From: Paraflavitalea pollutisoli
GTDB taxonomy: Bacteria; Bacteroidota; Bacteroidia; Chitinophagales; Chitinophagaceae
Direction: 5' to 3'
NCBI RefSeq assembly: GCF_029360705.1
Contig: NZ_JARKMX010000004.1
Coordinates: forward strand, 62,001-126,000
Length of the DNA stretch: 64,000 bases
The position numbers and the translations under genes are program-made. Below, one piece after another: positions 41,274-57,324 of the stretch. Numbering within the stretch: position 1 is the first letter of the stretch; each line of letters starts with the position of its first letter. The notes under the pieces are model-generated. The model was not told the origin of the DNA. It did no database searches and was given only the letters and a program-made list of their open reading frames with translations.

Positions 41274-41305
41274 AACGGCGGCTCGTAGAATTACGATCCG
41301 CCGTT
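41274..41305. promoter_or_regulatory. Palindromic site upstream of RNA cassette 1
   Basis: AACGGCGG-c-TCGTA, loop GAAT, TACGA-t-CCGCCGTT: a 13-base-pair hairpin with one mismatch. Its core TCGTA-N4-TACGA (41283-41296) ends 47 bases before the -33 TTG of the small-RNA promoter. The same core lies at the same distance in cassettes 2 and 3, which points to an operator or activator site rather than a chance hairpin. Confidence 0.65.
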
Positions 41306-41330
41306 GTAAATACTGAACATTTTTAATTGC

Positions 41331-41373
41331 GCAGTTTCACTCTTGTGTTAAAAGAGTCTTAATAGTACTTTTA
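41331..41373 (+). promoter_or_regulatory. Promoter of small RNA 1
   Basis: A conserved -33 block GCAGTTTCACTCTTG ends with TTG at 41343-41345. Exactly 20 bases later comes TACTTTTA (41366-41373), a TAnnTTTG-type -7 box with the last base changed. The other two cassettes have the same spacing and the same extended -33 block. Transcription would begin near 41378. Confidence 0.75.
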
Positions 41374-41377
41374 TATC

Positions 41378-41614
41378 GTTGATTAAATGATACGGTTTCC
41401 GACGATCCAACATCCAGAAAGACCAACAATATCCAGAAAAACCAAGACCATCCAACATCCAAAAAGAAACCAATCGGAAACAATATCAGTTAACAACCAT
41501 TTAAAATTCCAGTATCGATATCCAATGATCCAGGAAAATCTTTCATGGTTAATGTTCATCTGAATCACGTCCAAAAGATTTTTAAGCCCCGCACCAGCGG
41601 GGCTTGTTTTTTTT
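41378..41614 (+). ncRNA. Candidate structured small RNA, copy 1
   Basis: About 235 nt between the promoter and a terminator, without an open reading frame. The 5' end (41378-41402, GTTGATTAAATGATAC then GGTTTCCGA) pairs with 41474-41497 (TCGGAAACAATATCAG then TTAACAAC) in a helix of about 20 pairs. The enclosed loop and the region after it hold seven ATCCA motifs and several AGAAAAACCA words. Then follow CAGGAAAA, the shared CACGTCCAAAAGATT and the terminator. It is transcribed away from the phosphatase gene and ends at the stop of the convergent EamA gene, so it is not a leader of any protein gene. Confidence 0.7.
41584..41614 (+). terminator. Rho-independent terminator of small RNA 1
   Basis: AAGCCCCGC-ACCA-GCGGGGCTT (41584-41605), then G and eight T. 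The T-run overlaps the stop codon of the convergent EamA gene, which may use the same hairpin from the other side. Confidence 0.92.
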
Positions 41615-42500
41615 ATCCATCCTTCCCGGCAGCTACCGATGGCCGGTTCATCCACACGATGGCGCCGAGCATGATCCCGACGCCTGCCCATTGCAGACCA
41701 TCTACCGATTCGTCCAGTACCCAGTAAGCCGATAATATAGCCACGGGAAGCTCCGCCGTCACGATGATGCTGCTCAGGCCCGTTCCCACCTTCGGCATGG
41801 CTTTGGAAAATAACAGGGGCGGCATGATCGTGCCGAATAAAGCCAGTAATACCGACCATTTAACAGTATCCGGGTTCAGGGAGACCTGTGCAGTCAGAGG
41901 CCGCATGTTGACCAACAGAATGCCCAGGGTAGATCCTGTCATGATCAAAGCGCTTTTCTGCGGAGCCGGGAAGTCTTTACCCAGTCGGCTGTTCGCAATG
42001 ATGTACAGCGCATATAGCAGGGCCGACAGGCACGCAAAACCTGCGCCGCTCAGGAAATGCGGCGAGATCGTTGTACGTGAGAGATTGCCTGCCAGCAGCG
42101 TTCCCAATAGAATACATCCAACAGCCAGGAGCTGCCCCCTGGAGGGCCGTGCCTGGAAGATCACGCGCTCCAGAAGTAATCCCATCCAGGTAAACTGCAT
42201 GAGCAGTAATATGGCGAGGGAGGCCGGAATGTACCGGACCGACAGGTAGTAGGTAAAAGACGAAAGGCCGATGGTGGCGCCGCTGGCCATCACGGGCAGC
42301 CAGCGACGTCGTAAGGCAGGCTGCTGCTGCCGACTGAGTGTCAGTAACACCCATAGCCATAAAACGATCATGCCAATGGCATGTTGTAACAGAGAGAGCC
42401 AGGCGATGCTATGTCCATCGAGGTAGGCGAGTTTTACAATTGTCGAGAGCACGCCATAGCTGCATGCACCCGCAAAGATCATTGCGCTGTATTTATTCAT
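41613..42500 (-). CDS. EamA/DMT-family transporter
   Basis: 295 aa with ten hydrophobic helices in two EamA repeats, the usual drug/metabolite transporter layout. The second repeat ends in the AVLSAYWVLDESVDGLQWAGVGIMLGAIVW-type region before a short charged tail. Substrate unknown; relatives export amino acids, sugars or metabolites. The gene is solitary and ends within the terminator of small RNA 1. Confidence 0.9.
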   Translation of the reverse strand: MNKYSAMIFAGACSYGVLSTIVKLAYLDGHSIAWLSLLQHAIGMIVLWLWVLLTLSRQQQPALRRRWLPVMASGATIGLSSFTYYLSVRYIPASLAILLLMQFTWMGLLLERVIFQARPSRGQLLAVGCILLGTLLAGNLSRTTISPHFLSGAGFACLSALLYALYIIANSRLGKDFPAPQKSALIMTGSTLGILLVNMRPLTAQVSLNPDTVKWSVLLALFGTIMPPLLFSKAMPKVGTGLSSIIVTAELPVAILSAYWVLDESVDGLQWAGVGIMLGAIVWMNRPSVAAGKDG

Positions 42501-42732
42501 TGATTCCGGTTGAAAAATAAAAGAAGGCAGGCGGATGGCCTGCAGATTCGCTGGAGGGCAGCAACAACCGGAGCGCTATTGGAGCACTGGTGACAGTAAC
42601 TTAAAAAAAGAGAAACCGGTTATTGGCCAATGGCAACCGGTGGCGGAGGTGTGGACTGTAAAATGCGATGGTTCATACCGCGAAAATACAAAAACTACGT
42701 TAACCTGTACTGCCTGATACCGGGGATAGGGA

Positions 42733-43914
42733 CTATCTCAAGGCCCGGCCTTCCTGGCCGGTAATGTATTCGGAAGGGAGTTGACCGGTTACTTTCTTGA
42801 AGGCGATGGCGAACGTATTCCGGTTGTTGAAGCCGCATTGTTGTGAAATGCCGTTCATATTGAGGTTTTCGGCCTTTCCTTCCCGGATGAAACCGATACA
42901 GAATTGAATGCGTTGATAGTTCAGGTAGTCATTGAAATTCTTGCCGGTGGTTTGGTTGATGAATGCCGACACCTGGTGGGGTGCGAGGTGGAGGTCTTCG
43001 GCCAGCTCTTTCAGGCTGTAGTTGCTTTTCAGAAACGGTTTGCTGTTGGTCATCAATCGCTCCAGTGCCTGCGTGGTTTGCCGGATAAAAGCTTCTTCCA
43101 TGGGGGGCTTTGGCTTTGCCGGTTGTTGCATCGGTTTAACTGACCTGCCTGTCAGGCCATATAAGATCTGCGGATATAGGTAGAGCGTAACGGCTGATAG
43201 CAGAATGCCCGCGGCAGGTGGTATGGTCGTAGACCAAACCAGTGAGTCGCCTGCCAGCATGCTGATGATGGTAGGCAGGAACAGCAGCAATTGTAAACCC
43301 GTATAGATATACTGCCAGCGGAACCAGACGGTGTTTTCCTTCACAATGTCGGATGGGATACTTCTCAGCAGGCGTACCTGCAGTATCCAATAAAAGGTAG
43401 CAATAACCGTCCTGATGGGTACATGCACATTGGCTGGCAACAACCATCCCTGGCGGAAAGCGGCAGCCAGTTCGAGGTTGTCAAGGTCTGCCCGGATAAC
43501 AGGAACTTTTACGGCTGTTGCCGAGAATATAAAAGGAGTGTAGTCGATCAGGTAATACAAGGCCGGCAGCAAATGGATAAGGTCGGACCATGATAGCGAT
43601 TTTCCTTTGGCGGCTACCCGTACATAGAGATAACAAAGCGGGATATACAAAAGCCAGCATACATTGCCCATTCTGTACAGGTGGGGTACGTACAGGATGA
43701 GTCTTGTATAGATCAGGTAGATGACGGTAAGCGTGATCCCAAAAGCTATGAATGCAGCACCCAGGAAACGATTGGCTTTAATGTCTGTATGCGGAGAAAA
43801 AGTCAGCAGTACGGTGCCTGTCAGCATCGATAACACGACCGAAATGAGACAGAAGATGGCTGCAGGCGTGTAAATGACTTGCATAAGCATGTTTTGATAT
43901 AGCAGGTTGGGCAT
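42733..43914 (-). CDS. Membrane-bound AraC-family transcriptional regulator
   Basis: 393 aa. Seven hydrophobic helices cover residues 10-250, then a linker (KPMQQPAKPKPPMEEAF) and an AraC helix-turn-helix pair: LKELAEDLHLAPHQVSAFIN, FNDYLNYQRIQFCI and ISQQCGFNNRNTFAIAFKKVTG. The N-terminal Met may be at residue 1, 9 or 11. It likely senses a membrane or periplasmic signal; its target is not evident from the flanks. Confidence 0.9.
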   Translation of the reverse strand: MPNLLYQNMLMQVIYTPAAIFCLISVVLSMLTGTVLLTFSPHTDIKANRFLGAAFIAFGITLTVIYLIYTRLILYVPHLYRMGNVCWLLYIPLCYLYVRVAAKGKSLSWSDLIHLLPALYYLIDYTPFIFSATAVKVPVIRADLDNLELAAAFRQGWLLPANVHVPIRTVIATFYWILQVRLLRSIPSDIVKENTVWFRWQYIYTGLQLLLFLPTIISMLAGDSLVWSTTIPPAAGILLSAVTLYLYPQILYGLTGRSVKPMQQPAKPKPPMEEAFIRQTTQALERLMTNSKPFLKSNYSLKELAEDLHLAPHQVSAFINQTTGKNFNDYLNYQRIQFCIGFIREGKAENLNMNGISQQCGFNNRNTFAIAFKKVTGQLPSEYITGQEGRALR

Positions 43915-44106
43915 ACAATTGATGCAAAAGGAAAATGATGCAGTCCAGATCTGTTACTAATGGTGATACAGCCAAAACAAGGTAGTGTCAATGTTTAAAC
44001 AGGGGCGGAATGTCGGGATAAGGTAAATGGATGGAGATAGGTTGCTATGGGCTAAGATAATGCATTTTGTTTTTGATACATATAACGACCGCATAAAATT
44101 GTCTTG

Positions 44107-44532
44107 CTATCCGCGCCTGCTGCGCATGGCTCTTATGTGTTGCAGGCTCTTGTCTTTTTGTAGCTGACGGTATTCGGCAGAATCTACTGCATACAAGGCT
44201 ACTCGTCCCTCGGCATCGCTGTGGATACCCCATCCGTAACGTTTGGAGAGGGGAGATGAACGCAGGCAGGGCTGCCCTTTCGAAAAGAAGGCAGCCCGTG
44301 CGGCAGGTTGTTCATGGCTGATTATATGGTTTCGCTCAGCAAAAACCTGGAATAATACATCGTCGGAAGTATATTTATAAGGGTTGTGCGCGATTATCTC
44401 GAAATGGTGATTGGCTACTGTTTTACTGTCACCTTTCTGCGGTGGTACTTCGCCGATCCTGACAGGACAATCGTCTGCTATTTCAATAAATGTATTGTGG
44501 TAGTTGGTGGTGTGGATTTTATTGTCCTTCAT
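44107..44532 (-). CDS. DUF6157-like protein (141 aa)
   Basis: A small soluble protein with no signal or membrane helix. The start IHTTNYHNTFIEIADDCPV and the middle NPYKYTSDDVLFQVFAERN match the pattern I recall for the DUF6157 family, found in Bacteroidota and Firmicutes without known function. Near the end KRYGWGIHSDAEGRVALY and a basic tail are present. Solitary gene. Confidence 0.75.
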   Translation of the reverse strand: MKDNKIHTTNYHNTFIEIADDCPVRIGEVPPQKGDSKTVANHHFEIIAHNPYKYTSDDVLFQVFAERNHIISHEQPAARAAFFSKGQPCLRSSPLSKRYGWGIHSDAEGRVALYAVDSAEYRQLQKDKSLQHIRAMRSRRG

Positions 44533-44643
44533 GACTTCAATGGCTGAAGTACAATTTAAGACTTTTTTCGTTTAGCATCCATCCACTGCCATCGTTAACA
44601 AATCGCTCCCGGCAGGTTATTACAAGGGGCAATCCTTCGAAAA

Positions 44644-46380
44644 TTAACGCCAGACGGGTAGCTGAAGAAAGCTGTCATTGTGCCATTTGATCACCAGGGG
44701 CGTTCCCGCATCCCGGATGGTTTCACTGCTTACGTCTTTTCCTGTACCGTAATTGATCTGTTCGAAAGGGCTTTTATTGATGTTGACGATGGCAACGATC
44801 CTGCTGCCTGTCTGCAGTTGCCTGCTGGTCATATAGGAATTGGAGAATGGGATCGTTGTTTTGTTACCCGGGGTCAGTAAATGTCGCACACGATGATCTT
44901 GGGCATAGCTGGCCCGTCCCATAAAATAGGTCAGGTAGATGTATTGGCCTTTGGCCGTTTGTTCAAATAATACGACGCTGAAATCTATATCCCGCTTGCT
45001 GATGGTGGCAGATAATTTTCCCATAAAGCATCCTGTCAATTCCAGCGGAGCGGATAGGGGGGCGCTTTTGAACACGATGCCGTGGTTGTCTGGCAGGCTG
45101 TCGTACAAAATGCTGTTGATGTAGTAATAGCTGTTGACGGTTCGTCGATCAGCCATATCCACCACCTGCCTGATGTAAGCAGGTTGTTGGGGACGGCTGC
45201 TGCTTAAGGTAGGCTGGCCATTGGTGGCTGTTTTGCTTAAGTAAAGGGTGAGGGTGTCGTTGCTGGTAGTGTTCCAGGACGCAGCGTGTTTCCACTGGTT
45301 GGTGCCCATCACCTGGTAGTTGACCTGGTTGCGCAGGATGGCAGGCTTGTCTTTGCCGAAGAAGATATGATCAAACCACTGGTAAATGATCTCATGAATG
45401 GGAATATTGGCTGATGGATCGATGCGGTAATTATTGAAGACGCTGTCGGGATATCCCTGGCAACCGAAATGACCATAAGGCCCGATCAATAAATAGTGCT
45501 GCGCATTCGGTACGTAACGCAGGTGTTCCCGAAAATAGTAAGTGGCCCCCACCTGTCCGCCGTCGAAATATCCTGTTGTGGTCAGTACGGGAATGTTGAT
45601 ATGCGCAAACTCTTCCCGGTAGGGAATCATGTTTTGCCAATAGGTATCATAGGTGGGGTGGGCGAGCCAGCTGCGGAAAATACGGTTGTTGGGCCTGTTG
45701 GCCAGGCTGTCCAGTGACCGGTAGGAGCTGCCTTCCTGGTACCACTGCCACAACAGGTCATTCCAATGCCGGCTGTTGTAATCGGCGGTATCCAGCCATT
45801 TGTTATTGGATACATAATAAGTCCAGGAGAAAGGAAAGGTCATGATCACATTGTTCATCATGGGTGCGTCCAGGCCCGGGGCAACGGAAGCCGAGGGTAC
45901 GATCGTTTTCAAGGCTGGATGCAATTGCTTGGTGGCTGCCCATTGGGCAAAGCCACTGTAGCTGCCTCCATACATGCCCACCTGCTGGTTGCTCCAGGAT
46001 TGGTGTGCGATCCAGTCGATGACATCGTAGGCATCGCGTCCGTCATATTCATAAGGGGCAACGTTTGTTTCGGGACTGTTTCGTTTGCCCCGTGTATAGG
46101 CTACTACGCCTGCGTACCCCCTGTCTGCTGCTTCCTGGGCCTTGCGGATATCCGCTACCCGGGCGTAGATGGTAAAGATCAGGATGGTGGGCAAAGGTTT
46201 TTGTACGCCTTTTTTCCGCACCAGCAGGGCTGATACCTGCGCGCCGTCGCGCGTGTTGATCAGCAGGGTGTCGTTGATGATATAACTGCTTTCAGGAGCA
46301 GAAGCGTAGGGCGTGGTTTGTGCCGTGACCGGTTGTTGAAGGGCCAGGCATAGCAAGGCCAGTGAGAATAGTATTCTCAT
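44644..46380 (-). CDS. CocE/NonD-family hydrolase (X-Pro dipeptidyl-peptidase S15 type)
   Basis: 578 aa with signal peptide (cleavage after PVTAQ). An alpha/beta-hydrolase domain carries the nucleophile in GMYGGSYSGFAQWAA, an Asp-containing TTGYFDGGQVGATYYF and the catalytic His in LIGPYGHFGC. A C-terminal jelly-roll domain follows. Members hydrolyse acyl or peptide bonds: cocaine esterase, glutaryl-acylases, X-Pro peptidases. It starts 30 bases after the LytTR gene on the same strand, so the LytS/LytTR pair probably controls its expression. Confidence 0.9.
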   Translation of the reverse strand: MRILFSLALLCLALQQPVTAQTTPYASAPESSYIINDTLLINTRDGAQVSALLVRKKGVQKPLPTILIFTIYARVADIRKAQEAADRGYAGVVAYTRGKRNSPETNVAPYEYDGRDAYDVIDWIAHQSWSNQQVGMYGGSYSGFAQWAATKQLHPALKTIVPSASVAPGLDAPMMNNVIMTFPFSWTYYVSNNKWLDTADYNSRHWNDLLWQWYQEGSSYRSLDSLANRPNNRIFRSWLAHPTYDTYWQNMIPYREEFAHINIPVLTTTGYFDGGQVGATYYFREHLRYVPNAQHYLLIGPYGHFGCQGYPDSVFNNYRIDPSANIPIHEIIYQWFDHIFFGKDKPAILRNQVNYQVMGTNQWKHAASWNTTSNDTLTLYLSKTATNGQPTLSSSRPQQPAYIRQVVDMADRRTVNSYYYINSILYDSLPDNHGIVFKSAPLSAPLELTGCFMGKLSATISKRDIDFSVVLFEQTAKGQYIYLTYFMGRASYAQDHRVRHLLTPGNKTTIPFSNSYMTSRQLQTGSRIVAIVNINKSPFEQINYGTGKDVSSETIRDAGTPLVIKWHNDSFLQLPVWR

Positions 46381-46410
46381 AAAATGGAAGGTGGGTTTAA
46401 ATGATGATTG

Positions 46411-47109
46411 TTATTGTTTATGCTTGCTGCGGAAAACAGCCGACTGCCGGTTGGATACGATCACCGGAAGACCATTGTGCAGCAGGATCTCCAGTCTGCC
46501 ATCGGATAAACTTTTTACCGATTGAATGAACCGTGTATTGATCACACTCGTTCTGCTGGCGCGAAAGAACACAGCCACATCGAGTGTCTTTTCCAATTGA
46601 TTGAGTGACCGTTTCAGGTATGTTTTCTTATCCCCGTAATATATGCGGGCATAGTTGCCGGTCGATTCGATGAGAAATATTTCCTCTACACGAATAAAAT
46701 GAAACCGTTCTCCGTCTCTGATAAACAGGGTCGAAAGTGGTTGGTTGCCCGGCTGCAGGGCGGCTTGTGCCCGTTCGATGGCCCGGGCAAACCGTTCTTC
46801 GCGAATGGGCTTCACCAGGTAGTCGATGGCATTGGTATCGAAAGCCTGCACAGCATATTTATCAAATGCGGTGGTAAAGATCACTTCCGGTATCTCCTCC
46901 AGCGACTCCAGCAGGTCAAAGCCTGATCGTTCCGGCATTTGTACATCGAGGAAGATCAGTACCGGGCGGATGGTCCGGATCAGTTCTTCCGCCTCATCTG
47001 CATTCGCAGCCTCACCGGCGATGGTGAAATCGGGGTACAGCAACAAATGTCTTTTGATCTCTTCCCGCGCCAGGCGTTCATCGTCGACGATCAATACCGG
47101 ATAACTCAT
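46411..47109 (-). CDS. LytTR-family response regulator
   Basis: 232 aa. Receiver domain with LIVDDERLAREEI, the phospho-acceptor Asp in LIFLDVQMP and DYLVKPIREERF, then a LytTR DNA-binding domain (FIRVEEIFLIESTGNYARIY, VINTRFIQSV, LPVIVSNRQSAVFRSK). Coupled by ATGA overlap to the kinase at 47106-48167 and followed by the CocE-type hydrolase. Confidence 0.94.
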   Translation of the reverse strand: MSYPVLIVDDERLAREEIKRHLLLYPDFTIAGEAANADEAEELIRTIRPVLIFLDVQMPERSGFDLLESLEEIPEVIFTTAFDKYAVQAFDTNAIDYLVKPIREERFARAIERAQAALQPGNQPLSTLFIRDGERFHFIRVEEIFLIESTGNYARIYYGDKKTYLKRSLNQLEKTLDVAVFFRASRTSVINTRFIQSVKSLSDGRLEILLHNGLPVIVSNRQSAVFRSKHKQ

Positions 47110-48167
47110 GACAAGGGCATTAACAGGGTGGCCAATACGGTTTCGTGGTCTGTTTGTGCCAGGTGCAGGCTGGCCTGTCCGTGAAACTGCAGTTGTAGCC
47201 GCTCCCGGAGATTATTCAATCCCAGTCCCGGATGGGGACTATCGATCAATTTGCCGGGATTTTCCACCACGATCTGCAATTGGCCTTCCTGCCGTTTGAC
47301 GGTAATGCCGAGTGTGCCGCCTGTCTTGCGGGTGGCGATACCATGTTTGACCGCGTTTTCTACCAGCAACTGCATGCTGAGCGGCAATACCTGTTGCTGC
47401 AGCAGGGTATTATCTACCAGCAGGGATACCTGCAATCTTTCCTCCAGCCGCATCTTCTCCAGTTCCAGGAAATCTGCCACCAGGTCCATTTCCTGGTGCA
47501 GGGGGATAAGCATCGCATCGCGGTTGTACAAGGCGGTTCTCAGTACTTCCGACAACAGATCGATGGCGCGCCGTGCCCCCTGCGGGTTGTCGATCACCTG
47601 TGCTTTGATGTTGTTGAGCGAATTGAAAAAAAAATGCGGATTGAGCTGGGCCGTCAGGTTGTTCAGCTGTGCCTCCCGGGCTATAATAGCGAGGCGGGCG
47701 CTTTCGCGGGTAGCTGTCAATTCGCGTTGTGCATAGTGATAACCGTAATAAGCCAGTAGCCAGATACTCATCAACCGGGTGCCGGTAACAAAGGTGGTAA
47801 GGCCTTGCTGCCGGAAATGTTCCTGCAGCGTATCTGAAAAGCCCGGCTCGAACCAGTGGCGTACCAGGTAGTTTTTGGTGATCGTCAATACCATAAAGCC
47901 CAGGCCCAACAGGAATATGGCGGGTATCAACCGCACGACCAGCTGCCGGGTAGGTAACTGGTGCCATCCCCGGCGCACTGACCAGGTTTTGTAGGCATGT
48001 GTGAGTGGAATATAAATGAGCAAGTCTGCAAAAAAGTGAATCACCGCCAGCCAGGGACTAAACTGCGTTCCGATATAGCCCAGGAAGTTCCAGTACAGGG
48101 AAGCAACCGACCAGCCGATCAGTTGGCATTTCCAGTATAGTGACCCCTTATTCAAGCCTGTTAACAT
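47106..48167 (-). CDS. LytS-type sensor histidine kinase
   Basis: 353 aa. Four hydrophobic helices in residues 10-145, then His_kinase with QLNPHFFFNSLNNIKAQ (phospho-His), LLVENAVKHGIATRK (N-box) and HPGLGLNNLRERLQL. Partner of the LytTR gene it overlaps. Third LytS-type kinase of the window; the three share only the family motifs and are not recent duplicates. Confidence 0.93.
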   Translation of the reverse strand: MLTGLNKGSLYWKCQLIGWSVASLYWNFLGYIGTQFSPWLAVIHFFADLLIYIPLTHAYKTWSVRRGWHQLPTRQLVVRLIPAIFLLGLGFMVLTITKNYLVRHWFEPGFSDTLQEHFRQQGLTTFVTGTRLMSIWLLAYYGYHYAQRELTATRESARLAIIAREAQLNNLTAQLNPHFFFNSLNNIKAQVIDNPQGARRAIDLLSEVLRTALYNRDAMLIPLHQEMDLVADFLELEKMRLEERLQVSLLVDNTLLQQQVLPLSMQLLVENAVKHGIATRKTGGTLGITVKRQEGQLQIVVENPGKLIDSPHPGLGLNNLRERLQLQFHGQASLHLAQTDHETVLATLLMPLS

Positions 48168-48285
48168 GTGTAGCGGTTTACAGGTGCAAATGAAACCAAT
48201 TGATACGGAATGGTAAAAACAAAGTAAAGGAGCGTCGGAACAGGGGGGATGAACGTAATTCTTTCTATTACAGCGGTTCAGGTAT
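48168..48285. other. Intergenic region between the kinase and RNA cassette 2
   Basis: About 120 bases that must hold the promoter of the minus-strand kinase operon. No exact TAnnTTTG match found on the minus strand. Confidence 0.25.
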
Positions 48286-48299
48286 TCGTAAATTTACGA
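48286..48299. promoter_or_regulatory. Palindromic site upstream of RNA cassette 2
   Basis: TCGTAAATTTACGA, a perfect 14-base palindrome with the TCGTA-N4-TACGA core, ending 46 bases before the -33 TTG at 48345. Matches the sites of cassettes 1 and 3 in core and distance; here the stem does not extend outward, which favours a protein-binding site over an RNA hairpin. Confidence 0.65.
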
Positions 48300-48332
48300 T
48301 AGCGGCCGTACTTGATGCAATTTGGAGATTGA

Positions 48333-48375
48333 GCAGTTTTGCTCTTGTATCCACAATTGTGAATAAGTATTTTTG
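48333..48375 (+). promoter_or_regulatory. Promoter of small RNA 2
   Basis: The -33 block GCAGTTTTGCTCTTG ends in TTG at 48345-48347. After exactly 20 bases comes TATTTTTG (48368-48375), an exact TAnnTTTG -7 box. Start of transcription is expected near 48380. Confidence 0.8.
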
Positions 48376-48379
48376 TATT

Positions 48380-48642
48380 GTTGAATTAGTTGATACGGTT
48401 TCAAAAAAATCCAAAGGTGTTCGCACCCAGATATCCGAAAAACCAAAGCTCTGATTGTATCCAATATCCAGGTTAAAGACCAAGCATCATCCAAAATCCA
48501 AAAACCAGGAAACATATCAACTAATCGGCGCCTTTAAATCCAATGTCAATGTCCAATTATCCAGGAAAAGCTGTGTGATTATTTTTCCTGATGACCGTCC
48601 AAAAAAGTTATGAAGCCCCGATTTTTCGGGGCTTATTTTTTT
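48380..48642 (+). ncRNA. Candidate structured small RNA, copy 2
   Basis: About 263 nt. The 5' ATTAGTTGATA-CG-GTTTC (48385-48402) pairs with GAAAC-A-TATCAACTAAT (48509-48525). The enclosed part and the next segment contain seven ATCCA motifs plus ATCCGAAAAACCA. A second hairpin is CAGGAAAA (48562-48569) with TTTTCCTG (48583-48590), followed by GACCGTCCAAAAAAG and a strong terminator. The terminator ends 35 bases before the DUF1080 start codon, so a leader or attenuator role for that gene is possible, but copy 1 has no such gene. Confidence 0.7.
48613..48642 (+). terminator. Rho-independent terminator of small RNA 2
   Basis: AAGCCCCGA-TTTT-TCGGGGCTT (48613-48634), then A and seven T. Almost the same stem as the terminator of copy 1. 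Confidence 0.92.
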
Positions 48643-48677
48643 GCCTACCTTCCCGGCCCTTGTGTAAATATCCCCGC

Positions 48678-49349
48678 ATGAAGAAGCTATCGATTGTTCC
48701 TGCCTTTGCGTTGTTCCTGTTTGCCTGCGGGCCCGTTTCCAGAAGCACCAGCCGTGCTGCTGCCAACACCGGTACTCCGGTCGAATGGTATGCCTATGCC
48801 AAAGACAAACGATATGACAATCCCTGGGAGCTGTATACCATCACCAATGGGGTCATCCGGTTGTTTGGCGACAAAACAGGCTACCTCATGTCCAGGCAGT
48901 CTTACGGCGATTTTGAGCTCACGCTTGATTACCGGTGGAATACCGGAAAGGAATACCAGCGGGGTACCGGTAAAAAGAACAGTGGCGTAATGTACAATGT
49001 GCCCGATACGGCCCGCGATATGTTGTGGCCTGCCGGCATCCAGTTTCAGATCAAGGAAGGCGCTACCGGCGATTTTATCCTGCTGGAGCAGGTCACGATG
49101 GAAGTGCGTGGGGAAACCCAGGCGCCGGGTAAAAGTGTGGCTGTGCCCCGCCTTAGTGAGCAGGAAAAGCCTGCCGGGGAGTGGAACACGATCCGGATTA
49201 TCCATCAGCAAGGTCACTGTATGCAATATCTCAACGGTGTACTTGTCAATGAAGGCACCAAGGCCTCTACCCAAAAAGGCCGCCTGCTGCTGCAATACGA
49301 GGGATCTCCCATCGATTTCCGGAATATTCAAATGCGTACGCTACAATAG
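48678..49349 (+). CDS. DUF1080 (3-keto-disaccharide hydrolase family) lipoprotein
   Basis: 223 aa from MKKLSIVPAF at 48678; the upstream extension of the frame runs into small RNA 2 and is not credible. The signal ends in a lipobox (LFAC near residue 16). The DUF1080 beta-sandwich shows LYTITNGVIRLFGD, DFELTLDYRWN, KNSGVMYNVPD and a C-terminal GRLLLQYEGSPIDFRNIQMR. The family includes enzymes acting on 3-keto-glycosides and glycan-binding forms; it is probably attached to a membrane facing the periplasm. Confidence 0.9.
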   Translation: MKKLSIVPAFALFLFACGPVSRSTSRAAANTGTPVEWYAYAKDKRYDNPWELYTITNGVIRLFGDKTGYLMSRQSYGDFELTLDYRWNTGKEYQRGTGKKNSGVMYNVPDTARDMLWPAGIQFQIKEGATGDFILLEQVTMEVRGETQAPGKSVAVPRLSEQEKPAGEWNTIRIIHQQGHCMQYLNGVLVNEGTKASTQKGRLLLQYEGSPIDFRNIQMRTLQ

Positions 49350-49487
49350 CGGAACTGAACGCTGCTTGTATCAAAACCGGACAGTGCTGGTTTGATAAAG
49401 CAATTCTACTGATTGAAAACGAGTTGGTTATAAAAGCGGCACTTTACTGGCAAGGATAAGTGAACCTATTGTCGTAAATGTATTGCT

Positions 49488-51869
49488 ATGTTTAAAGCCT
49501 ATCTCAAGACCGGTTGGCGCACCATCCGGAAGAACAAAGTCTTTTCCGTGATCAACATACTCGGGCTCACGTTCGGTATTGCGTGTTGCATGATGATCTT
49601 TCTGTTTCTCCTCAACGAATTCAGTGCCGACAATTTCCACAAGAATGGAAAGAACATGTACCGCGTGATGCGTGGTTTTGAGGTCAACGGCGATAAGCGC
49701 TGGGCGCCCTATCTCTCCGGTCCCTATGGTCCCGCCTTGCTGAACGATTTCTCATCACAGCTCAAGACGGCCGTACGGGTAAGAACTACCTCGGGCCTCA
49801 TATCCATCGATGACAAAGGATACAACGAAAAGAAGCTGGTCATGGCCGATGACAACTTCTTTGATCTGTTTTCTTTCCCGCTCACCAAGGGCAACGCTGC
49901 TTCCGTGCTGAAAGAGCCGGGCAGCATCGTGCTCACCGAGAAAACCGCGAAAAAGTATTTTGGGGATGAAGACCCCATCGGCAAGATCGTACAATTCAAC
50001 AAACGACTGGCGCTGAAAGTGACTGGTGTGGCCAAAGACGTACCGCTCAATTCACACCTGAATTTTGATATGGTATTGCCCATTTCGATCGTCTCGAAAG
50101 AAGACTGGTTCAATGTATGGATCAACAACAACCAGTTCGTCTATGTACAACTGAATAACCCGGCTGAAAAAGCGGCGTTGGAAAAGCAGTTCCCTGCCTT
50201 TATGGAAAAGTACATGGGGGCTGATATGAAACGTTTTGGCACCAAATTCGACCTCAGGTTGAATCCGCTGGAGGATATCTATTTTGAAGCGCCCAATGCA
50301 TTCGATGATGTGCGTCATGGCGATAAAAAAGTAGTGTATGTATTCCTGTCGATCGCCGTATTGATCCTCCTGGTGGCCTGTATCAATTTCACCAACCTCT
50401 CTACCGTACGGGCGATAGAACGTTCACGGGAAGTAGGGGTGCGAAAGGTACTGGGGGCACTACGTTTTGACCTGGTGCGGCAGTTTATCGGTGAATCCGT
50501 ACTGCTGGCCACGATATCCTGTCTGCTGGCTATTGGGCTGGTGGAACTGCTGATGCCCTGGTACAACCAACTGCTCGGTTATTCACTGACGGTGTCCTGG
50601 AATTCGCCGGTTATCTATGCTTTCCTGGCCGGCGTGATCCTGTTGGTTGGTCTGTTGGCAGGCAGCTATCCCGCCATCGTGTTGTCGGCCTTCTCGCCCG
50701 TGCAGGCGCTCAAGGGTAAACTACGGCTTGGCAAAGGTGGTGCTTTCTTCCGCCAGGGCCTCGTGGTCGTGCAGTTCAGCATCTCCGTATTCCTCATTAT
50801 TGGTACCATTGTTATCGTTAACCAGATGCGGTTTGTAAAAAGTAAGGAGCTGGGCTTCGACAAAGAACATATCGTGTTGGTGCCAGTTAGCAATGATGAG
50901 ATCTATAACCACCGGTGGGCGTTCAAAAATGAATTGACACAAAACCGGCAGATCGCAGCGGTTTCCATTATGTCCGGAGCACCCGGAGGATTTCACGATA
51001 TACACAATTTTGAAGTGGAAGGCGGCAATGATCAGATCATCAAGCTGCGCACGGAGTTTGCCGATTTCGAACTGGTGCCCACACTGGGACTGAAGGTCAT
51101 TGCAGGACGCAACCTGTCGGCCCAGTTCCCGACAGATACTGCCGGATCGGTGTTGATCAACCGCAAGGCTGCCACCACGCTGGGCTTTACGCCTGAACAA
51201 GCTATCGGTAAATGGATCAAGAATACAATTCGCGATGAATCGAGGCGCCGGATTGTGGGCGTGATCGAAGATTATAATTTCAGATCGCTTAAAGAAGAAG
51301 TGGAACCACTGGTGATCTCTCCCAACGAAGACAACCGCGTCATTGCCATCCGCCTGAAGCCCGGTGATGTGCCGGAGGCGCTGGCTGCTATCAAGGCGGA
51401 GTATTCGAAACAGGTATCCGTTTATCCTTTCGAGTATGATTTCCTCGATCAGCAATTTGACGCCTCTTATAAGACTGACGAAAGACAACAATCCTTACTA
51501 ACGGTATTCTCTGGTCTCGCCATATTCATTGCCTGCCTGGGACTGTTTGGTTTGGCCTCGTTTGCGGCGGCGAAGCGTACCAAAGAGGTGGGCGTGCGAA
51601 AGGTGCTGGGTTCCTCTGTGACCGGTATTATAGTACTGTTGTCGAAGGATCTGTTGAAGCCGGTATTGCTGGCTATCCTGATCGCATTCCCAATAGGATA
51701 TTATGCCATGCATAACTGGCTGCAAACTTTTGCCTACCGGATCGATATTCAGTGGTGGATCTTTGTGCTGGCAGGCTTGCTAGCTGCCTCAATAGCATTG
51801 CTTACGGTGGGTTTTCAGGCGCTGAAAGCGGCCCTGGTAAACCCCGTGAAGTCACTACGGGCCGAGTAA
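49488..51869 (+). CDS. FtsX/MacB-type ABC permease
   Basis: 793 aa: membrane helix near residues 20-42, a periplasmic MacB core domain, three helices (about 285-400) with the FtsX motif ERSREVGVRKVLGA, another helix and periplasmic domain (430-670), and a final FtsX set with AAKRTKEVGVRKVLGS. Such large permeases are frequent in Bacteroidota and take part in lipoprotein or peptide export or in signalling. No ATPase gene is next to it, so it must use one encoded elsewhere. It lies between RNA cassettes 2 and 3. Confidence 0.92.
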   Translation: MFKAYLKTGWRTIRKNKVFSVINILGLTFGIACCMMIFLFLLNEFSADNFHKNGKNMYRVMRGFEVNGDKRWAPYLSGPYGPALLNDFSSQLKTAVRVRTTSGLISIDDKGYNEKKLVMADDNFFDLFSFPLTKGNAASVLKEPGSIVLTEKTAKKYFGDEDPIGKIVQFNKRLALKVTGVAKDVPLNSHLNFDMVLPISIVSKEDWFNVWINNNQFVYVQLNNPAEKAALEKQFPAFMEKYMGADMKRFGTKFDLRLNPLEDIYFEAPNAFDDVRHGDKKVVYVFLSIAVLILLVACINFTNLSTVRAIERSREVGVRKVLGALRFDLVRQFIGESVLLATISCLLAIGLVELLMPWYNQLLGYSLTVSWNSPVIYAFLAGVILLVGLLAGSYPAIVLSAFSPVQALKGKLRLGKGGAFFRQGLVVVQFSISVFLIIGTIVIVNQMRFVKSKELGFDKEHIVLVPVSNDEIYNHRWAFKNELTQNRQIAAVSIMSGAPGGFHDIHNFEVEGGNDQIIKLRTEFADFELVPTLGLKVIAGRNLSAQFPTDTAGSVLINRKAATTLGFTPEQAIGKWIKNTIRDESRRRIVGVIEDYNFRSLKEEVEPLVISPNEDNRVIAIRLKPGDVPEALAAIKAEYSKQVSVYPFEYDFLDQQFDASYKTDERQQSLLTVFSGLAIFIACLGLFGLASFAAAKRTKEVGVRKVLGSSVTGIIVLLSKDLLKPVLLAILIAFPIGYYAMHNWLQTFAYRIDIQWWIFVLAGLLAASIALLTVGFQALKAALVNPVKSLRAE

Positions 51870-51882
51870 AATTTGTCCGATC

Positions 51883-51911
51883 GGGCGACTCGTAATAGTA
51901 CGAGGTTGCCC
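51883..51911. promoter_or_regulatory. Palindromic site upstream of RNA cassette 3
   Basis: GGGCGAC-TCGTA, loop ATAG, TACGA-g-GTTGCCC: a 12-pair hairpin with one bulged base. The TCGTA-N4-TACGA core (51890-51903) ends 46 bases before the -33 TTG. It starts 14 bases after the FtsX gene stop, so a second role as a weak terminator is possible, but no T-run follows. Confidence 0.65.
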
Positions 51912-51936
51912 GTAGATGGTGCAGAAAAAGGAAAGG

Positions 51937-51979
51937 GCGGTTTTGCGCTTGCGCCGGCGGCCTCTGCTGAGTAGTTTTG
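51937..51979 (+). promoter_or_regulatory. Promoter of small RNA 3
   Basis: The -33 block GCGGTTTTGCGCTTG ends in TTG at 51949-51951. After exactly 20 bases comes TAGTTTTG (51972-51979), an exact TAnnTTTG -7 box. Transcription is expected from about 51984. Confidence 0.8.
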
Positions 51980-51983
51980 TATT

Positions 51984-52194
51984 GTTGATTACATGATACG
52001 GTTATCCGAAACTTCCAGGAATATCCATGAAAAACCAGCTTAAATAGGGATGTTCAATATCCGAAAAACCACCAGGATACCTTATCATATAATTAATAAT
52101 CCAATCATCCGGGAAAGACCAAGGTTAAGTTTTCCTGATCACGTCTAAAAGATTCTGAACAAAGGCGGGTGGCTGCAGAGCGCTCGCCTTTTTT
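51984..52194 (+). ncRNA. Candidate structured small RNA, copy 3
   Basis: About 210 nt, the shortest copy. ATTACATGATACGGTTATCC (51988-52007) pairs with GGATACCTTATCATATAAT (52075-52093) with few mismatches. The loop holds ATCCR motifs and ATCCGAAAAACCA. The second hairpin is CGGGAAA (52110-52116) with TTTCCTG (52131-52137), followed by the shared ATCACGTCTAAAAGATT and a terminator. It ends about 160 bases before the start of the ECF sigma gene, so it may be an independent RNA in the upstream region of the SusCD regulator. Confidence 0.7.
52163..52194 (+). terminator. Rho-independent terminator of small RNA 3
   Basis: AGGCGGGTG (52163-52171), loop GCTGCAGAG, CGCTCGCCT (52181-52189) with two wobble pairs, followed by five T. 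The stem differs completely from those of copies 1 and 2, so the terminator function is conserved while the sequence is not. Confidence 0.85.
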
Positions 52195-52354
52195 ATTTTG
52201 CCGTCTCCATTACCTGGCGCTACCAGCCCTGTCGTTTTTCTTCTCCGTGCCTCAAGAGCCAGTTCACAATTATATAACCTGCTGGCTGCTGCCCGGCAAT
52301 TATTTTTGCCGCTGTTTATCCGGCCCCCTTCTCGGCTGCTTCAAAACTTACAGG

Positions 52355-52954
52355 ATGAAGAAAGCGCAGATACCCGATCCACTGCCTGCTACCGAACTGG
52401 CTACTGATCTGGAGCATTTCGACAGGTTGTACTATACCTATCACCAGGCTGTATATGCCAACATCTTCAAAATGGTGAGCCATGCGTCCTGCGCGGAAGA
52501 CATTTTACAGGAAGTATTTCTCTCCCTCTGGGAAAACAGGCAAGCGCTCGACCCCGATAAGGTCGCCGGTTGGTTGTTTGTGGTTAGCTATAACAAAGCT
52601 GCTTCTTACCTCAAGCGTAAGTTAAAAGAACCTACGCTGCTGGTGGCAGACGACGAATCGATCACCCATGACATGGCTGCCGCTGAATCACCCGACGAAG
52701 AATTGTTTCAGCTGAGGCTATCTGCTGTGGAAGAGGCCATCAATCACCTGCCTGCCCGTAAGAAAGAAGTATTCCGCCTGTGCCGGTTCGAGGGCAAATC
52801 GCCTAACGAAGTGGCCAGCCAACTGGGTATCTCCGAGTTGTCGGTCAAGGATTACCTCAAACAATCGACCCAATTCATCCGCCAATACATTCGTAGCCGA
52901 TATCCACATTTTGAATTGACTTCCTTGTCTCTCCTGCTGGTCTATATGGCTTAA
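52355..52954 (+). CDS. ECF-type RNA polymerase sigma factor (SusCD-associated)
   Basis: 199 aa from MKKAQIPDP at 52355; the longer frame back to 52169 runs into the RNA 3 terminator. Sigma region 2 (FDRLYYTYHQAVYANIFKMV, AEDILQEVFLSLWENR, VAGWLFVVSYNKAASYLKR) and region 4 (INHLPARKKEVFRLCRFEG, SPNEVASQLGISELSVKDYL) are complete. It is followed by a FecR-like anti-sigma and a SusC/SusD pair, the normal order for carbohydrate- or nutrient-responsive trans-envelope signalling in Bacteroidota. Confidence 0.94.
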   Translation: MKKAQIPDPLPATELATDLEHFDRLYYTYHQAVYANIFKMVSHASCAEDILQEVFLSLWENRQALDPDKVAGWLFVVSYNKAASYLKRKLKEPTLLVADDESITHDMAAAESPDEELFQLRLSAVEEAINHLPARKKEVFRLCRFEGKSPNEVASQLGISELSVKDYLKQSTQFIRQYIRSRYPHFELTSLSLLLVYMA

Positions 52955-53033
52955 CAATTCCGTAATATTAAAAGGCATCCCCTTTTTTGCACTTCGGAGT
53001 ATTTATGGTGAACATCCGTCGGGATTAACCAAT

Positions 53034-54113
53034 ATGCAACAGCAGAATACACCATGGATAGGGGTTTGGAATGAACCGCTCACAGTGGCTGAAAAGAAAC
53101 AGTTGCTGGCTACCTTTCTCGAACAGGAAGCCGATTGGAAGGCTATGCTGGAAACAGCCTTCCTGGAAGATGTTCAGCAGCAGCGTCAATACCTGCCGAC
53201 AGGTCGTACTGAACTTTTATTGACACTACTCCATACAAAGATCAGGCAGGAGGCCCGGTTGCAAGCGCCGGCGCGGGTGGTACGATTCTCATCGATCGGA
53301 AAATGGATAGCGGCCGCTGCTGTCCTGGCTGTTGTAGGAATGACCATCTATTGGTTCCGTCCGCAAAGCGGGGGACACCCTTCAACTCCTGCAGAGCTGG
53401 CTACCAACGACCAGCAACTGCATACGATCACCAATCGGACAAAGACCGATAGCCTGATCCGGATGGAAGATGGCTCCCTGGTCACACTGGCTGTTGGCAG
53501 TACGATCCGTTTCTATCAACCTTATAAGAATAATCTCCGGGATATCAGTCTAGACGGTCAGGCACTATTCAAAGTAGCGAAGGACTCTCTTCGGCCATTT
53601 ACGGTATATGCCGGTGGTATTGCTACCACCGCATTGGGCACCCAGTTCCTGGTCACCACCCTTGAACAACATACAGTAGCCGTGCGTCTCTACGAAGGAA
53701 AAGTAGCCATTCATCAGGCTGCCGGTGGCCCGTCTATGAAAGAAGTGGTGTTGAAGCCTGGTGAGGAATTTTCATTGGATCAACTGCTACATCAATGCTC
53801 GGTCAGGCCCTTTAAGCAGATCAATACAACGATACCTGAGTCCGATCCTATAGAACAAAAGACCATTAAACCAAGAACGTCTGTGCGGGCCCTTGAATTT
53901 GCACAGGAACCATTACCCCTTGTCCTCACCGCTATCGGAAAGCGTTATCATGTGCACTTCGTGTACGATGAAGCCAGTTTGAGCAACGAACAGGTAACCG
54001 GCAAGTTCCTGTCATCCGACTCCTTATCCACGGTACTATCAATTCTCGGAACTGTAAACAAATTGACGTTTACCCACCAGGATGGGTCGATCGTCGTCAA
54101 GAAATCAGAATAA
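53034..54113 (+). CDS. FecR-domain anti-sigma factor
   Basis: 359 aa. A cytoplasmic N-terminus (about 85 residues), one membrane helix (IGKWIAAAAVLAVVGMTIYW, near 88-107), the FecR domain (IRMEDGSLVTLAVGSTIRFY, TALGTQFLVTTL, VRLYEGKVAIHQ) and a C-terminal STN-like DUF4974 part (LPLVLTAIGKRYHVHFVYDE). It binds and controls the upstream ECF sigma and receives a signal from a TonB-dependent receptor. Confidence 0.94.
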   Translation: MQQQNTPWIGVWNEPLTVAEKKQLLATFLEQEADWKAMLETAFLEDVQQQRQYLPTGRTELLLTLLHTKIRQEARLQAPARVVRFSSIGKWIAAAAVLAVVGMTIYWFRPQSGGHPSTPAELATNDQQLHTITNRTKTDSLIRMEDGSLVTLAVGSTIRFYQPYKNNLRDISLDGQALFKVAKDSLRPFTVYAGGIATTALGTQFLVTTLEQHTVAVRLYEGKVAIHQAAGGPSMKEVVLKPGEEFSLDQLLHQCSVRPFKQINTTIPESDPIEQKTIKPRTSVRALEFAQEPLPLVLTAIGKRYHVHFVYDEASLSNEQVTGKFLSSDSLSTVLSILGTVNKLTFTHQDGSIVVKKSE

Positions 54114-54194
54114 TAGCATAATAGCACGAACCGGTTGTGAACATGCCTTACCCGCGTGCAGGCCGGCTATTGCCCCAAAAACACAAACAAGTAT

Positions 54195-57100
54195 ATGGTA
54201 GCACTCAACCAAACAATCAGCAAATGGTGCTGGCTCACCCTCGTGGCGCTTTTCGGCACCATCGCCGTGCACGCGCAGGACAAGGTCCAGCTAAAAGGTA
54301 TCGTCACCACGGAAAGTGGTGATGCGCTCGCCGGCGTTTCCATCTCGGTACACGCCGAAGGTGCCAAAGACAAACAATCCTATACATCCAACGAGAAGGG
54401 GGTGTTTGTATTGGAATCCCTGGTACCCAAAACAAAGTATCGTTTTGTCTTTACCCACGTGGGGTATGAGGCTTATGAAGTAAAATCTTTTGAGATCAAG
54501 GCAGGCGTGAACAATTCCCTCATCGTACGTATGAAGGATGCCTCTGCCGGTCTGAATGAAGTCGTGGTGGTGGGTTATGGCTCGCTGAAGAAGAAAGATG
54601 TGACCGGCTCCATCAGTTCATTGAAGTCGGACAGGATCACGGAAATCGCAGCCGGGGATGCCACACAGGTGTTGCAGGGGCGTGTATCGGGTGTCTACGT
54701 GCAAACTACTTCCTGGCGGCCGGGTACTCCGTCGCAGGTAAGGGTACGAGGCAATCGGTCGATCACGGCCGACAACGAACCGCTCTATGTGGTAGATGGT
54801 ATTCCCTTCGTGGATGCCATCAGCCAGATCAGTCCCAACGATATCGAATCGATCGAGGTATTGAAAGATGCATCGGCTACCGCCATCTACGGTAACCGGG
54901 GTGCCAACGGGGTTATCCTCATTACCACGAAGAAAGGCAAACAAGGTAAGACCATCGTTGAATACAATGGCTATTATGGTGTACAGAAGAACCAACCTTT
55001 GCCCGAACTCATGGATGCGGTCTCCTTTGTGGAGTACTCCCGCGAAGCACAACGCAATTCGCTCGGCGGTGCTTATGATCCCAAACCCAATAAAGAACTT
55101 GACCTCAGGAACGAGCAGCTGGTAGCTACACCTTACATGTTGGCCAATATACAGCGTGCCTGGGAAAGCGGTACCTACGATCCTTCCAAACTCGTCAGCA
55201 CAGACTGGTTAAGCTATGGCTTACGCGATGGTGTGATGCAGGACCACCAGGTCAGTGTGCGTGGTGGCAGCGAACCCACCAAATTTCTCCTATCGGCCGA
55301 TTATTTCAACAACAAAGGGGTGGTGCGTGACCAGGACTTTACCCGTTATTCGGTACGCATCAACGCCGAACACAATGTGGTCAAAGGATTCCGTATCGGT
55401 ACCCAGACCGTTTTTTCCCGCTCACAACAGAACGCCGGCTGGGATGATGTATTTGACGGATATGGTCTCAAGAGTTTCAATCCACTGGCTTCTCCCTATG
55501 AAGCGGATGGCACTACACTCTCTCTGTTTCCGACCAACAATACCCGTACCCCCAACCCTATTACCAATTTTGGGGTGACCAAACGCGTCCGTAACATCGA
55601 TCGTTTTTTAGGTAATTACTATGGAGAGGTCAGCTTCCTGCGTGATTTCAGTTTCCGCACCAACCTGGGGCTCGACTATCGCGGTTTGCAAACCCTGGAC
55701 TTTAACGGCAAGAATACGGCCATTGCCGGTGGACAGGCACCTTCGGCAGCCTCGAACGGTACTGCCAAGAAGTTTATGTACACCCTGGAAAACATCCTGA
55801 GTTACAACAAAACCATCGGCAACGGACACTCCTTGTATGCCACCCTCGTACAGTCTGTACAAGCCGAGCAGGTAGAGAGCAATGGTATTTCTGTAAAGGA
55901 CCTTCCTTATGATGGTCAGCAGTATTACAACGTAGGTAGTGCACTTACCCTCAACAACGTCAGCAGTGAGATCTCCAAATGGAACCTCGCTTCCTTTATG
56001 GGTCGTTTGAACTATAGCTATAAAGGAAAATACCTGGCTACGGTTTCTGCGCGTTACGACGGTTCTTCCCGACTGGCAGAAGGCAAGAAATGGGTGGCTT
56101 TCCCCTCTGTAGCCCTGGCCTGGCGCATCAAGAACGAAGACTTCCTGCGCAATTCCAACCTGTTCAGTGACCTGAAGCTGCGACTGGGCTGGGGTAGAAC
56201 GGGTAACTCCAGCGTGAAGCCCTATACCACCTGGGGCGAACTGTCAACTATCCGGTATGTATTCGGAGAGGCGACTGCCCTTGGCTTTGCACCCAACAAA
56301 ATGATCAACCCCAACCTTACCTGGGAAACGACGGGCCAGTACAATGTAGGTCTCGATTTCGGTCTGTGGAGCGGCCGCGTGACCGGTAGCCTGGAGTTTT
56401 ATCAACAGAATACGTACGATCTGCTGCTCGATCGTTTCCTGCCATCTGCTTCCGGGTTCGACAGGATCCTGACCAACGTCGGTAAAACGAAGAACAAAGG
56501 GGTAGAGTTGAGCCTGCATACCAGCAATGTGCGCAGCCGAGCCTTTGAATGGAGCTCGGACTGGATCTTCTCCGCCAATAAGGAAGAGATCGTTGAGCTC
56601 TATAATGGCAAACAGGACGATGTTGCCGGTGGCTTGTTTATCGGCAACCCGGTACGTTCGCTCTATGACCTCGGGTTCAACGGCATCTGGCAGGATACGG
56701 ATGGCGACAAAGCGGAGATGGCTAAGTTCAACGCCAACGGTTCAACGTTCAAGCCGGGCGATGTAAGGCCGCTCGACCGCAATCGCGACTACAAGATCGA
56801 CGCCAGCGACCGCTACATCATTGGTCAGCGTGATCCCAAATGGACTGCCAGCTGGGCCAATAATTTCCGCTACCGCCATTTCGACGCGTCTGTATTCCTG
56901 GTAGGTATGTTTGGACAAACATTGTATCATGATCTGGACATGCGTTTTGATGGCCGTTACAACCAGCCTGCACTGGATTACTGGACACCCGCCAACCCCA
57001 GCAATAAATATCCCCGTCCTTTGCTGGGTACCGCCGGCCTGAACTACCTCAGCACGCTGAACTACTATGATGGATCATTTGTGCGTGTGAAGAACATCTC

Positions 57101-57284: not shown

Positions 57285-57324
57285 TTGTAGTTCCTGTGTA
57301 GATGAACGAACTAAAAACACAATC

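What the first reader, a model, noticed from the sequence alone, without database searches (positions are those of the whole stretch)
41274..52194. Three paralogous, promoter- and terminator-bounded small RNAs of an unrecognised family
Sequence shows: three non-coding cassettes on the plus strand with the same order of elements: TCGTA-N4-TACGA palindrome, 46-47 bases, extended -33 block, 20 bases, TAnnTTTG-type -7 box, conserved 5' end TATYGTTGAWT, long helix, ATCCA-rich part, ACGTCYAAAA segment, rho-independent terminator. Known: TAnnTTTG/TTG boxes are the housekeeping promoter of Bacteroidota, and families of paralogous small RNAs acting on polysaccharide-utilisation genes have been described in Bacteroides. 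Inference: this is a small-RNA family, perhaps with a similar role in the Chitinophagaceae. I do not recognise it as any known class.
Basis: partly seen in the sequence, partly recalled or inferred. Interest (0 to 1): 0.93.

Follow-up and report, generated by a model that had tools for sequence, protein, structure and literature searches.

The report
Response-regulator-linked RUCCA-repeat small RNA family
The three copies belong to a large family of bacterial small RNAs, tied to one signalling protein, that look built to soak up an RNA-binding protein, much as the Csr/Rsm RNAs of E. coli and Pseudomonas do but with different parts.

Summary
In detail: three plus-strand non-coding cassettes share a promoter, a 5' closing helix, RUCCA-rich loops and a terminator-like 3' end; none reaches an Rfam gathering score.

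The finding is larger than reported. A promoter model finds exactly 8 copies in each of 5 same-genus genomes (inferred Paraflavitalea); by reading, all 40 lead into RNAs of this kind. The promoter occurs in 117 of 294 genomes of the same family (Chitinophagaceae by named relatives). A model of the RNA 5' domain hits 7 of 395 genomes drawn from the phylum, all in that family.

One copy type lies head to head with a response regulator (receiver plus GerE): 71 of 76 loci; 4 of the 5 misses have too little upstream sequence. Regulator and promoter co-occur over 294 genomes (phi 0.88).

RUCCAA is about 7-fold over shuffles; TGGAY is depleted.

Best model: the regulator switches on several RNAs whose RUCCA arrays titrate an RNA-binding protein, as GacA–RsmX/Y/Z–RsmA does. 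Hfq is not detected in 59 relatives; CsrA was not searched; the partner is unknown (RRM proteins correlate). Transcription, regulator binding and titration are inferred. A specific polysaccharide role is not supported.

The parts
41283..41296 (+). Copy A: upstream palindrome TCGTA-N4-TACGA, proposed regulator site
41331..41373 (+). Copy A: core promoter, -33 block GCAGTTTCACTCTTG (41331-41345) to -7 box TACTTTTA (41366-41373)
   Evidence: model R1 match
41378..41614 (+). Copy A: predicted small RNA (about 237 nt)
   Evidence: ends predicted, not measured
41378..41402 (+). Copy A: P1 helix, 5' strand
   Evidence: fold; covariation
41403..41473 (+). Copy A: unpaired loop with the RUCCA/GAAAACC array
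41474..41497 (+). Copy A: P1 helix, 3' strand
   Evidence: fold
41583..41614 (+). Copy A: terminator hairpin and T run
48286..48299 (+). Copy B: upstream palindrome
48333..48376 (+). Copy B: core promoter, GCAGTTTTGCTCTTG to TATTTTTG
   Evidence: model R1 match
48380..48642 (+). Copy B: predicted small RNA (about 263 nt); P1 strands about 48379-48402 and 48509-48530; terminator 48613-48642
   Evidence: ends predicted
51890..51903 (+). Copy C: upstream palindrome
51937..51980 (+). Copy C: core promoter, GCGGTTTTGCGCTTG to TAGTTTTG
   Evidence: model R1 match
51984..52194 (+). Copy C: predicted small RNA (about 211 nt); P1 strands about 51981-52007 and 52075-52100; terminator-like hairpin and T run to 52194 (fold only)
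   Evidence: not called by the terminator scan

Best explanation
The three cassettes are members of a Chitinophagaceae family of trans-acting small RNAs, 8 per genome in this genus. SHOWN by sequence comparison: one shared promoter type with conserved upstream sites; a closing helix at the 5' end; arrays of RUCC(A/R) words, often followed by CC-N0-3-GAAA and AAACC(A/G), in loops predicted unpaired; variable 3' parts; and conserved head-to-head linkage and co-distribution of one copy type with a response regulator of the receiver-GerE (NarL/LuxR) type. INFERRED: the regulator binds the upstream sites and switches on all copies together; the RNAs act as multivalent decoys that titrate an RNA-binding protein recognising the repeated motif and so release the mRNAs it controls. 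This is the design of GacA -> RsmX/Y/Z (CsrB) -> RsmA/CsrA with other components. An RRM-domain protein is the leading candidate for the titrated protein.
For: Promoter model: 8 hits in each of 5 genus genomes, by reading all 40 followed by such RNAs. 117 of 294 family genomes. A pattern from inside the RNA finds 76 loci in named genomes, and 76 of 76 have the promoter 29-57 nt upstream. Divergent regulator beside 71 of 76 of them (Pfam). Regulator in 124 and promoter in 117 of 294 genomes, both in 112, phi 0.88. RTCCAA 405 against 54 in shuffles over 108 RNAs, TGGAY 4 against 24. P1 covariation score reached in 0 of 500 shuffles. No more ORF than in shuffles. Hfq over cut-off in 0 of 59 relatives. 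RRM copy number goes with the RNAs at genus level after genome size (partial r 0.34, p 6e-4). Multi-motif decoys under a GacA-type regulator are known elsewhere (PMC2375449 and PMC7366521, passages).
Against: No expression, binding or mutant data. No protein is shown to bind RUCCA. Genomes are not independent, so the correlations are inflated by descent. Only types F and G lie beside the regulator in this genome; that it acts on the other six copies is inferred from the shared promoter. RTCC words are only modestly more unpaired than in shuffles (0.67 against 0.61), and GGAY as a whole is not significantly depleted (64 against 78). RRM gene leaders mostly lack RUCC (5 of 6 have none), so no sign of autoregulation through the motif. 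12 genomes have the regulator without a promoter hit, 5 the reverse. CsrA was not searched.
Confidence: 0.5

Rival explanations
1. Base-pairing sRNAs under the same regulator: the RUCCAA stretches are multi-copy seeds that pair with UUGGAY in many mRNAs near start codons, in the manner of FopS/GibS in Bacteroides.
For: Paralogous base-pairing sRNAs with housekeeping-type promoters exist in Bacteroides (PMC11697453, passages). Motif words are sequence-exact and conserved between genera, e.g. ATCCAATGTCC and ACCGTCCAGAA.
Against: Up to 23 short copies per RNA with variable spacing (X1) is more than a pairing RNA needs. No genome-wide target search could be run. The only pairing test made, against six RRM leaders, gave no signal.
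Confidence: 0.3
2. The RNAs act on RNA polymerase or the ribosome (6S-like or a mimic of rRNA ends).
For: RUCCAA is complementary to UUGGAU near the 3' end of 16S rRNA (recalled sequence); D-type RNAs end in a CCTCCTGCTAA/TTAGCAGGAGG hairpin.
Against: No long bulged 6S-like helix in the folds; no Rfam match in the window or in 20 further loci; arrays of single-stranded words are not the plan of 6S RNA.
Confidence: 0.08
3. Cis-acting leaders of downstream genes, or small-protein mRNAs.
For: Copies B, C, D, G and H have a same-strand open frame downstream.
Against: A, E and F face convergent genes; neighbours differ between types; terminator hairpins are scanned at the ends of A and B; longest sense ORF median 18 aa against 19 in shuffles.
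Confidence: 0.05

Closest known systems
Gac/Rsm and BarA-UvrY/Csr systems (RsmX/Y/Z, CsrB/C RNAs)
   Same: Several intergenic RNAs with many copies of a short unpaired motif; a response regulator linked to their promoters; palindromic site upstream of the promoter (passages of PMC2375449 and PMC7366521).
   Different: Motif is RUCCA/GAAAACC, not GGA in small hairpin loops; the regulator gene lies beside the RNA; no Rfam match; the titrated protein is unknown and CsrA was not searched here.
FopS/GibS RNAs and RbpB of Bacteroides
   Same: Paralogous multicopy sRNAs of Bacteroidota with housekeeping-type core promoters; an RRM protein is involved there (PMC11697453, passages).
   Different: FopS has a single-stranded 5' seed and a terminator hairpin; here a closing helix, motif arrays, longer RNAs, a conserved upstream region and a linked response regulator.
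Other Rfam RNA families
   Same: Rho-independent terminator hairpins give weak matches.
   Different: No family reaches its gathering score in the window or in 20 further loci.

Membership tests
Csr/Rsm decoy RNAs | Many copies of one short motif in single-stranded regions | tested here: met
   RTCCR 5-10 per A-C RNA and 23 in X1; RTCCAA 405 against 54. The motif is not GGA.
Csr/Rsm decoy RNAs | GGA motifs (CsrA/RsmA sites) | tested here: not met
   GGAY is not enriched: 64 against 78 in shuffles; 0 in A and B copies
Csr/Rsm decoy RNAs | Match to a Csr/Rsm family of Rfam | tested here: not met
   0 gathering matches; RsmY appears only as a terminator match at 17.4 bits against 57
Csr/Rsm decoy RNAs | Control by a NarL/LuxR-type response regulator | tested here: inconclusive
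   Linkage 71 of 76 and phi 0.88; binding and activation not shown
Csr/Rsm decoy RNAs | CsrA/RsmA present and titrated | not tested
FopS/GibS | Short RNA with single-stranded 5' seed before a terminator | tested here: not met
   5' end is in helix P1 in the folds
FopS/GibS | Binding by an RRM protein (RbpB) | not testable with these tools
   8 RRM proteins in the genome and a correlation across genomes only

The most novel reading that the evidence does not exclude
A second, independent solution of the Gac/Rsm kind: a Bacteroidota two-component regulator drives up to eight RNAs that titrate an unknown, non-Hfq global RNA-binding protein (possibly of RRM type) through RUCCA/GAAAACC arrays, which would define a new RNA-protein recognition code and a hidden global regulon in the Chitinophagaceae.
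Probability: 0.45. Interest if true: 0.95.

Novelty: new variant of a known kind. Interest (0 to 1): 0.87.

Why it matters
Bacteroides lacks the classical sRNA chaperones (PMC11697453, passages), and Hfq was not found over cut-off in 59 relatives of this genome, so how this phylum runs global post-transcriptional control is open. This family gives a defined promoter, regulator gene, RNA set and repeated motif in cultured genera such as Flavihumibacter, Terrimonas and Pseudoflavitalea, so the partner protein can be sought directly. If true it would be a clear case of convergent evolution of response-regulator-driven RNA decoys.

Tried and rejected
BLAST of copy B in 59 relatives found clear homologues only in the genus; most weak hits elsewhere cover the terminator end. 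Copy A against plasmids: no match. TGATACGGTT as a family tag was too narrow: 29 matches in the genome, of which the three window copies are members (the script stopped with an error after printing).

RNAalifold on the plain alignment missed P1; I stated P1 by hand and counted pairs. There the covariation score and the cells changed on both sides are reached by 0 of 500 shuffles, but the number of pairs changed on both sides (85 of 500) and of pair types (241 of 500) are not unusual. In the 32-sequence 5'-domain alignment 9 of 12 P1 pairs never vary, partly because the sequences were picked with a pattern containing that helix, so it is weak evidence.

RUCC autoregulation of RRM genes was not seen, nor pairing of the sRNAs with six RRM leaders. 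My Python terminator scan does not discriminate: 82 of 109 sense, 66 of 109 on the opposite strand. Cold-shock proteins are an unlikely partner: of 49 genomes that I listed by hand as having 3 or more CSD matches, 4 carry the promoter. Promoter without regulator: 5 genomes; G071, G150 and G262 have one hit each close to the threshold, and G148 and G286 are 85% and 79% complete. The E limit of 1e-60 also admits G-type paralogues of about 50% identity, so a few of the 124 may have only those.

Paper searches showed no description of this family in their listings; only openly licensed papers are held, and only passages of three papers were read.

Full report
WHAT WAS CHECKED. The window lies in an 8.76 Mb genome of 16 contigs. 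Exact palindromes occur at 41283, 48286 and 51890; with one mismatch the window has 7 against 0.89 expected. Folding z-scores are -3.88, -2.97 and -2.81. No Rfam family reaches its gathering score in the window. RNA ends are predictions.

FROM THREE TO EIGHT. BLAST of copy B in 59 genomes gives strong matches only in the genus. In the regions fetched from the five genus genomes, a profile of the three copies finds A, B and C in the same order in each: 15 copies, plus a divergent longer member X1 in G001. A sequence-only model of 16 promoters (R1) then finds exactly 8 matches in each of the 5 genomes, the weakest at E 1.2e-4. I read downstream of every one: the 15 A-C copies and X1 and 24 more. 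By reading, all 40 lead into an RNA with a 5' helix starting at GTTGATT or a variant of it and repeated RUCC words. D to H are the five further types; X1 is the D copy of G001.

STRUCTURE AND MOTIFS. On the 15 A-C copies P1 has 88.5% of cells paired. For the two stated helices together the covariation score and the cells changed on both sides are reached in 0 of 500 shuffles; the number of pairs with such changes is not exceptional (85 of 500). RTCCR occurs 5-10 times per A-C RNA and 23 times in X1; at most 1 of 300 shuffles is as high for any of the 16. Over 108 RNAs (first 235 nt; one of 109, L190, dropped beforehand; 40 of them are orthologues and paralogues of one genus, so not independent) RTCCAA is 405 against 54 in shuffles, CC-N0-3-GAAA 302 against 107, AAACC(A/G) 190 against 44, TGGAY 4 against 24, and GGAY 64 against 78. 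In 40 of these RNAs RTCC is unpaired with mean probability 0.67 against 0.61 for the same word in shuffles, a modest difference. Sense ORFs are no longer than in shuffles (median 18 against 19 aa).

HOW WIDE. R1 hits 117 of 294 genomes drawn from the same family, 47 of 101 genera, with up to 8 copies per genome. In 298 genomes of the order it hits 37: 35 in the same family and 2 others at E 7.8e-4 and 9.9e-4. A model of the RNA 5' domain (R3) hits 7 of 395 genomes drawn from the phylum, all in the same family; R1 was not run over the phylum. Of 25 other-genus loci read, 24 show the same kind of RNA and one (L164) does not. A pattern taken only from inside the RNA, scanned over the named species genomes of GTDB r220, gives 76 loci. 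Those labelled to genus are Flavihumibacter, Terrimonas, Pseudoflavitalea, Paraflavitalea, Pseudobacter, Niastella and Flavipsychrobacter; the rest are assemblies labelled Chitinophagaceae, Chitinophagales, Sphingobacteriales, Bacteroidetes and the like. Contig lengths shared with G003 (534503, 853034) point to Paraflavitalea sp. CAU 1676, so the window's genus is inferred to be Paraflavitalea. The promoter lies 29-57 nt upstream of the pattern in 76 of 76, and 12 further promoter hits in these 0.56 Mb also precede RNAs of the same look. The window and 20 further loci have no Rfam gathering match.

PROMOTER. From 151 non-redundant promoters (194 before filtering) the consensus is nGnAnnTTTACGA-N8-GTAAATACcGAA-N6-AAATnGgGCAnTTnTGCTCTTGT-N19-20-TAnnTTTG. 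The TTAC and GTA cores lie upstream of a Bacteroidota-type core promoter, and a second palindrome, GAGCA-N4-TGCTC, overlaps the -33 box. The GTAA/TTAC half-sites resemble the GacA box TGTAAG-N6-CTTACA; that box is recalled, and the passages I read do not print it.

THE REGULATOR. In this genome types F and G each lie head to head with a gene for a protein with Response_reg and GerE domains. Of the 76 named-genome loci, 71 have a homologue (62-98.6% identity), on the opposite strand and 245-512 nt upstream of the RNA motif. Of the 5 misses, 4 have under 250 nt upstream held; L311 has 1111 nt and no such gene. Over 294 family genomes the regulator (E up to 1e-60) is in 124 and the promoter in 117: both 112, promoter only 5, regulator only 12, neither 165; phi 0.88. 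Genomes are not independent; among 15 genera that I picked because they seemed mixed, three (g11, g115, g61) hold members with both and members with neither. For 56 regulator genes that I picked from the listing, so not an unbiased rate, 46 have a divergent promoter hit 135-258 nt away in the list; four of the other ten (G000, G006, G128, G153) have one.

POSSIBLE PARTNER. Hfq is over its cut-off in 0 of 59 relatives (one weak match below it, in G007), with 5 of 14 control genomes positive. The genome has 8 RRM proteins. Over 287 of 294 genomes (7 without RRM are not listed; none of them is a carrier) carriers average 4.2 RRM matches and others 2.1; 0 of the RRM-less genomes carry the promoter. 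At genus level (n 101) the partial correlation given genome size is 0.34 (p 6e-4), while size adds nothing once RRM is given. Cold-shock expansions go the other way: 4 of 49 genomes with 3 or more CSD matches carry the promoter. Against an RRM partner: 5 of 6 RRM gene leaders have no RUCC. This is a lead, not a demonstration. CsrA was not searched.

MECHANISM. The best reading is a response regulator that turns on a set of decoy RNAs, each with many copies of one short motif, to draw an RNA-binding protein from its mRNAs. PMC2375449 (passages) describes GacA-controlled RsmX/Y/Z with multiple unpaired GGA motifs that sequester RsmA-family proteins, and that several motifs are needed. PMC7366521 (passages) describes the same circuit in general. 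The present RNAs fail membership there by motif and by Rfam, so the claim is 'works like', not 'is'. Base pairing, as for FopS/GibS (PMC11697453, passages), is the main rival. The polysaccharide idea rests on copy C, upstream of an ECF sigma gene (Pfam) and FecR-like, SusC-like and SusD-like genes (named by eye). Other copies sit by a phosphoesterase and an EamA transporter (A), a histidine kinase and a 3-keto-disaccharide hydrolase (B), a periplasmic binding protein (D), a short-chain dehydrogenase (E), response regulators (F, G) and a BNR-repeat protein (H).

Noticed in passing
L322-L327, about 150 nt before the ATG: Several RRM genes of this genome share a similar 5' leader (GCATCAGTATT ... 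CCATTGCAT ... CTTGCCTTACTCAGATATCATTTTA), possibly a leader element of RRM genes.
   Followed up: partly
L117 and loci L140, L142, L143, L145, L147, L148, L154, L157, L158: E-type RNAs carry a very conserved 3' domain, GTAAAATTTGTACCTATTGATGACC ... GGTAAGGTTTCGTACAAA, which may be a separate functional module.
   Followed up: no
L116 and other D-type loci: D-type RNAs end in a CCTCCTGCTAA / TTAGCAGGAGG hairpin, resembling anti-SD and SD sequences.
   Followed up: no
L188 (four promoters in 2 kb) and L192 (three): Some genomes carry tandem arrays of these RNA genes.
   Followed up: no
L164/L190 (G104:C147 around 17955): Promoter beside a regulator homologue but followed by an RNA without the RUCC array; its 3' part (GTAGTAGCGA, GGTTTACTTA) recurs in L197 and L199.
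   Followed up: no
window 46411-48167 and 52169-59106: Copy B is divergent from a histidine kinase gene next to a LytTR-like response regulator gene (by eye); copy C precedes an ECF sigma gene and FecR-like, SusC-like and SusD-like genes.
   Followed up: partly
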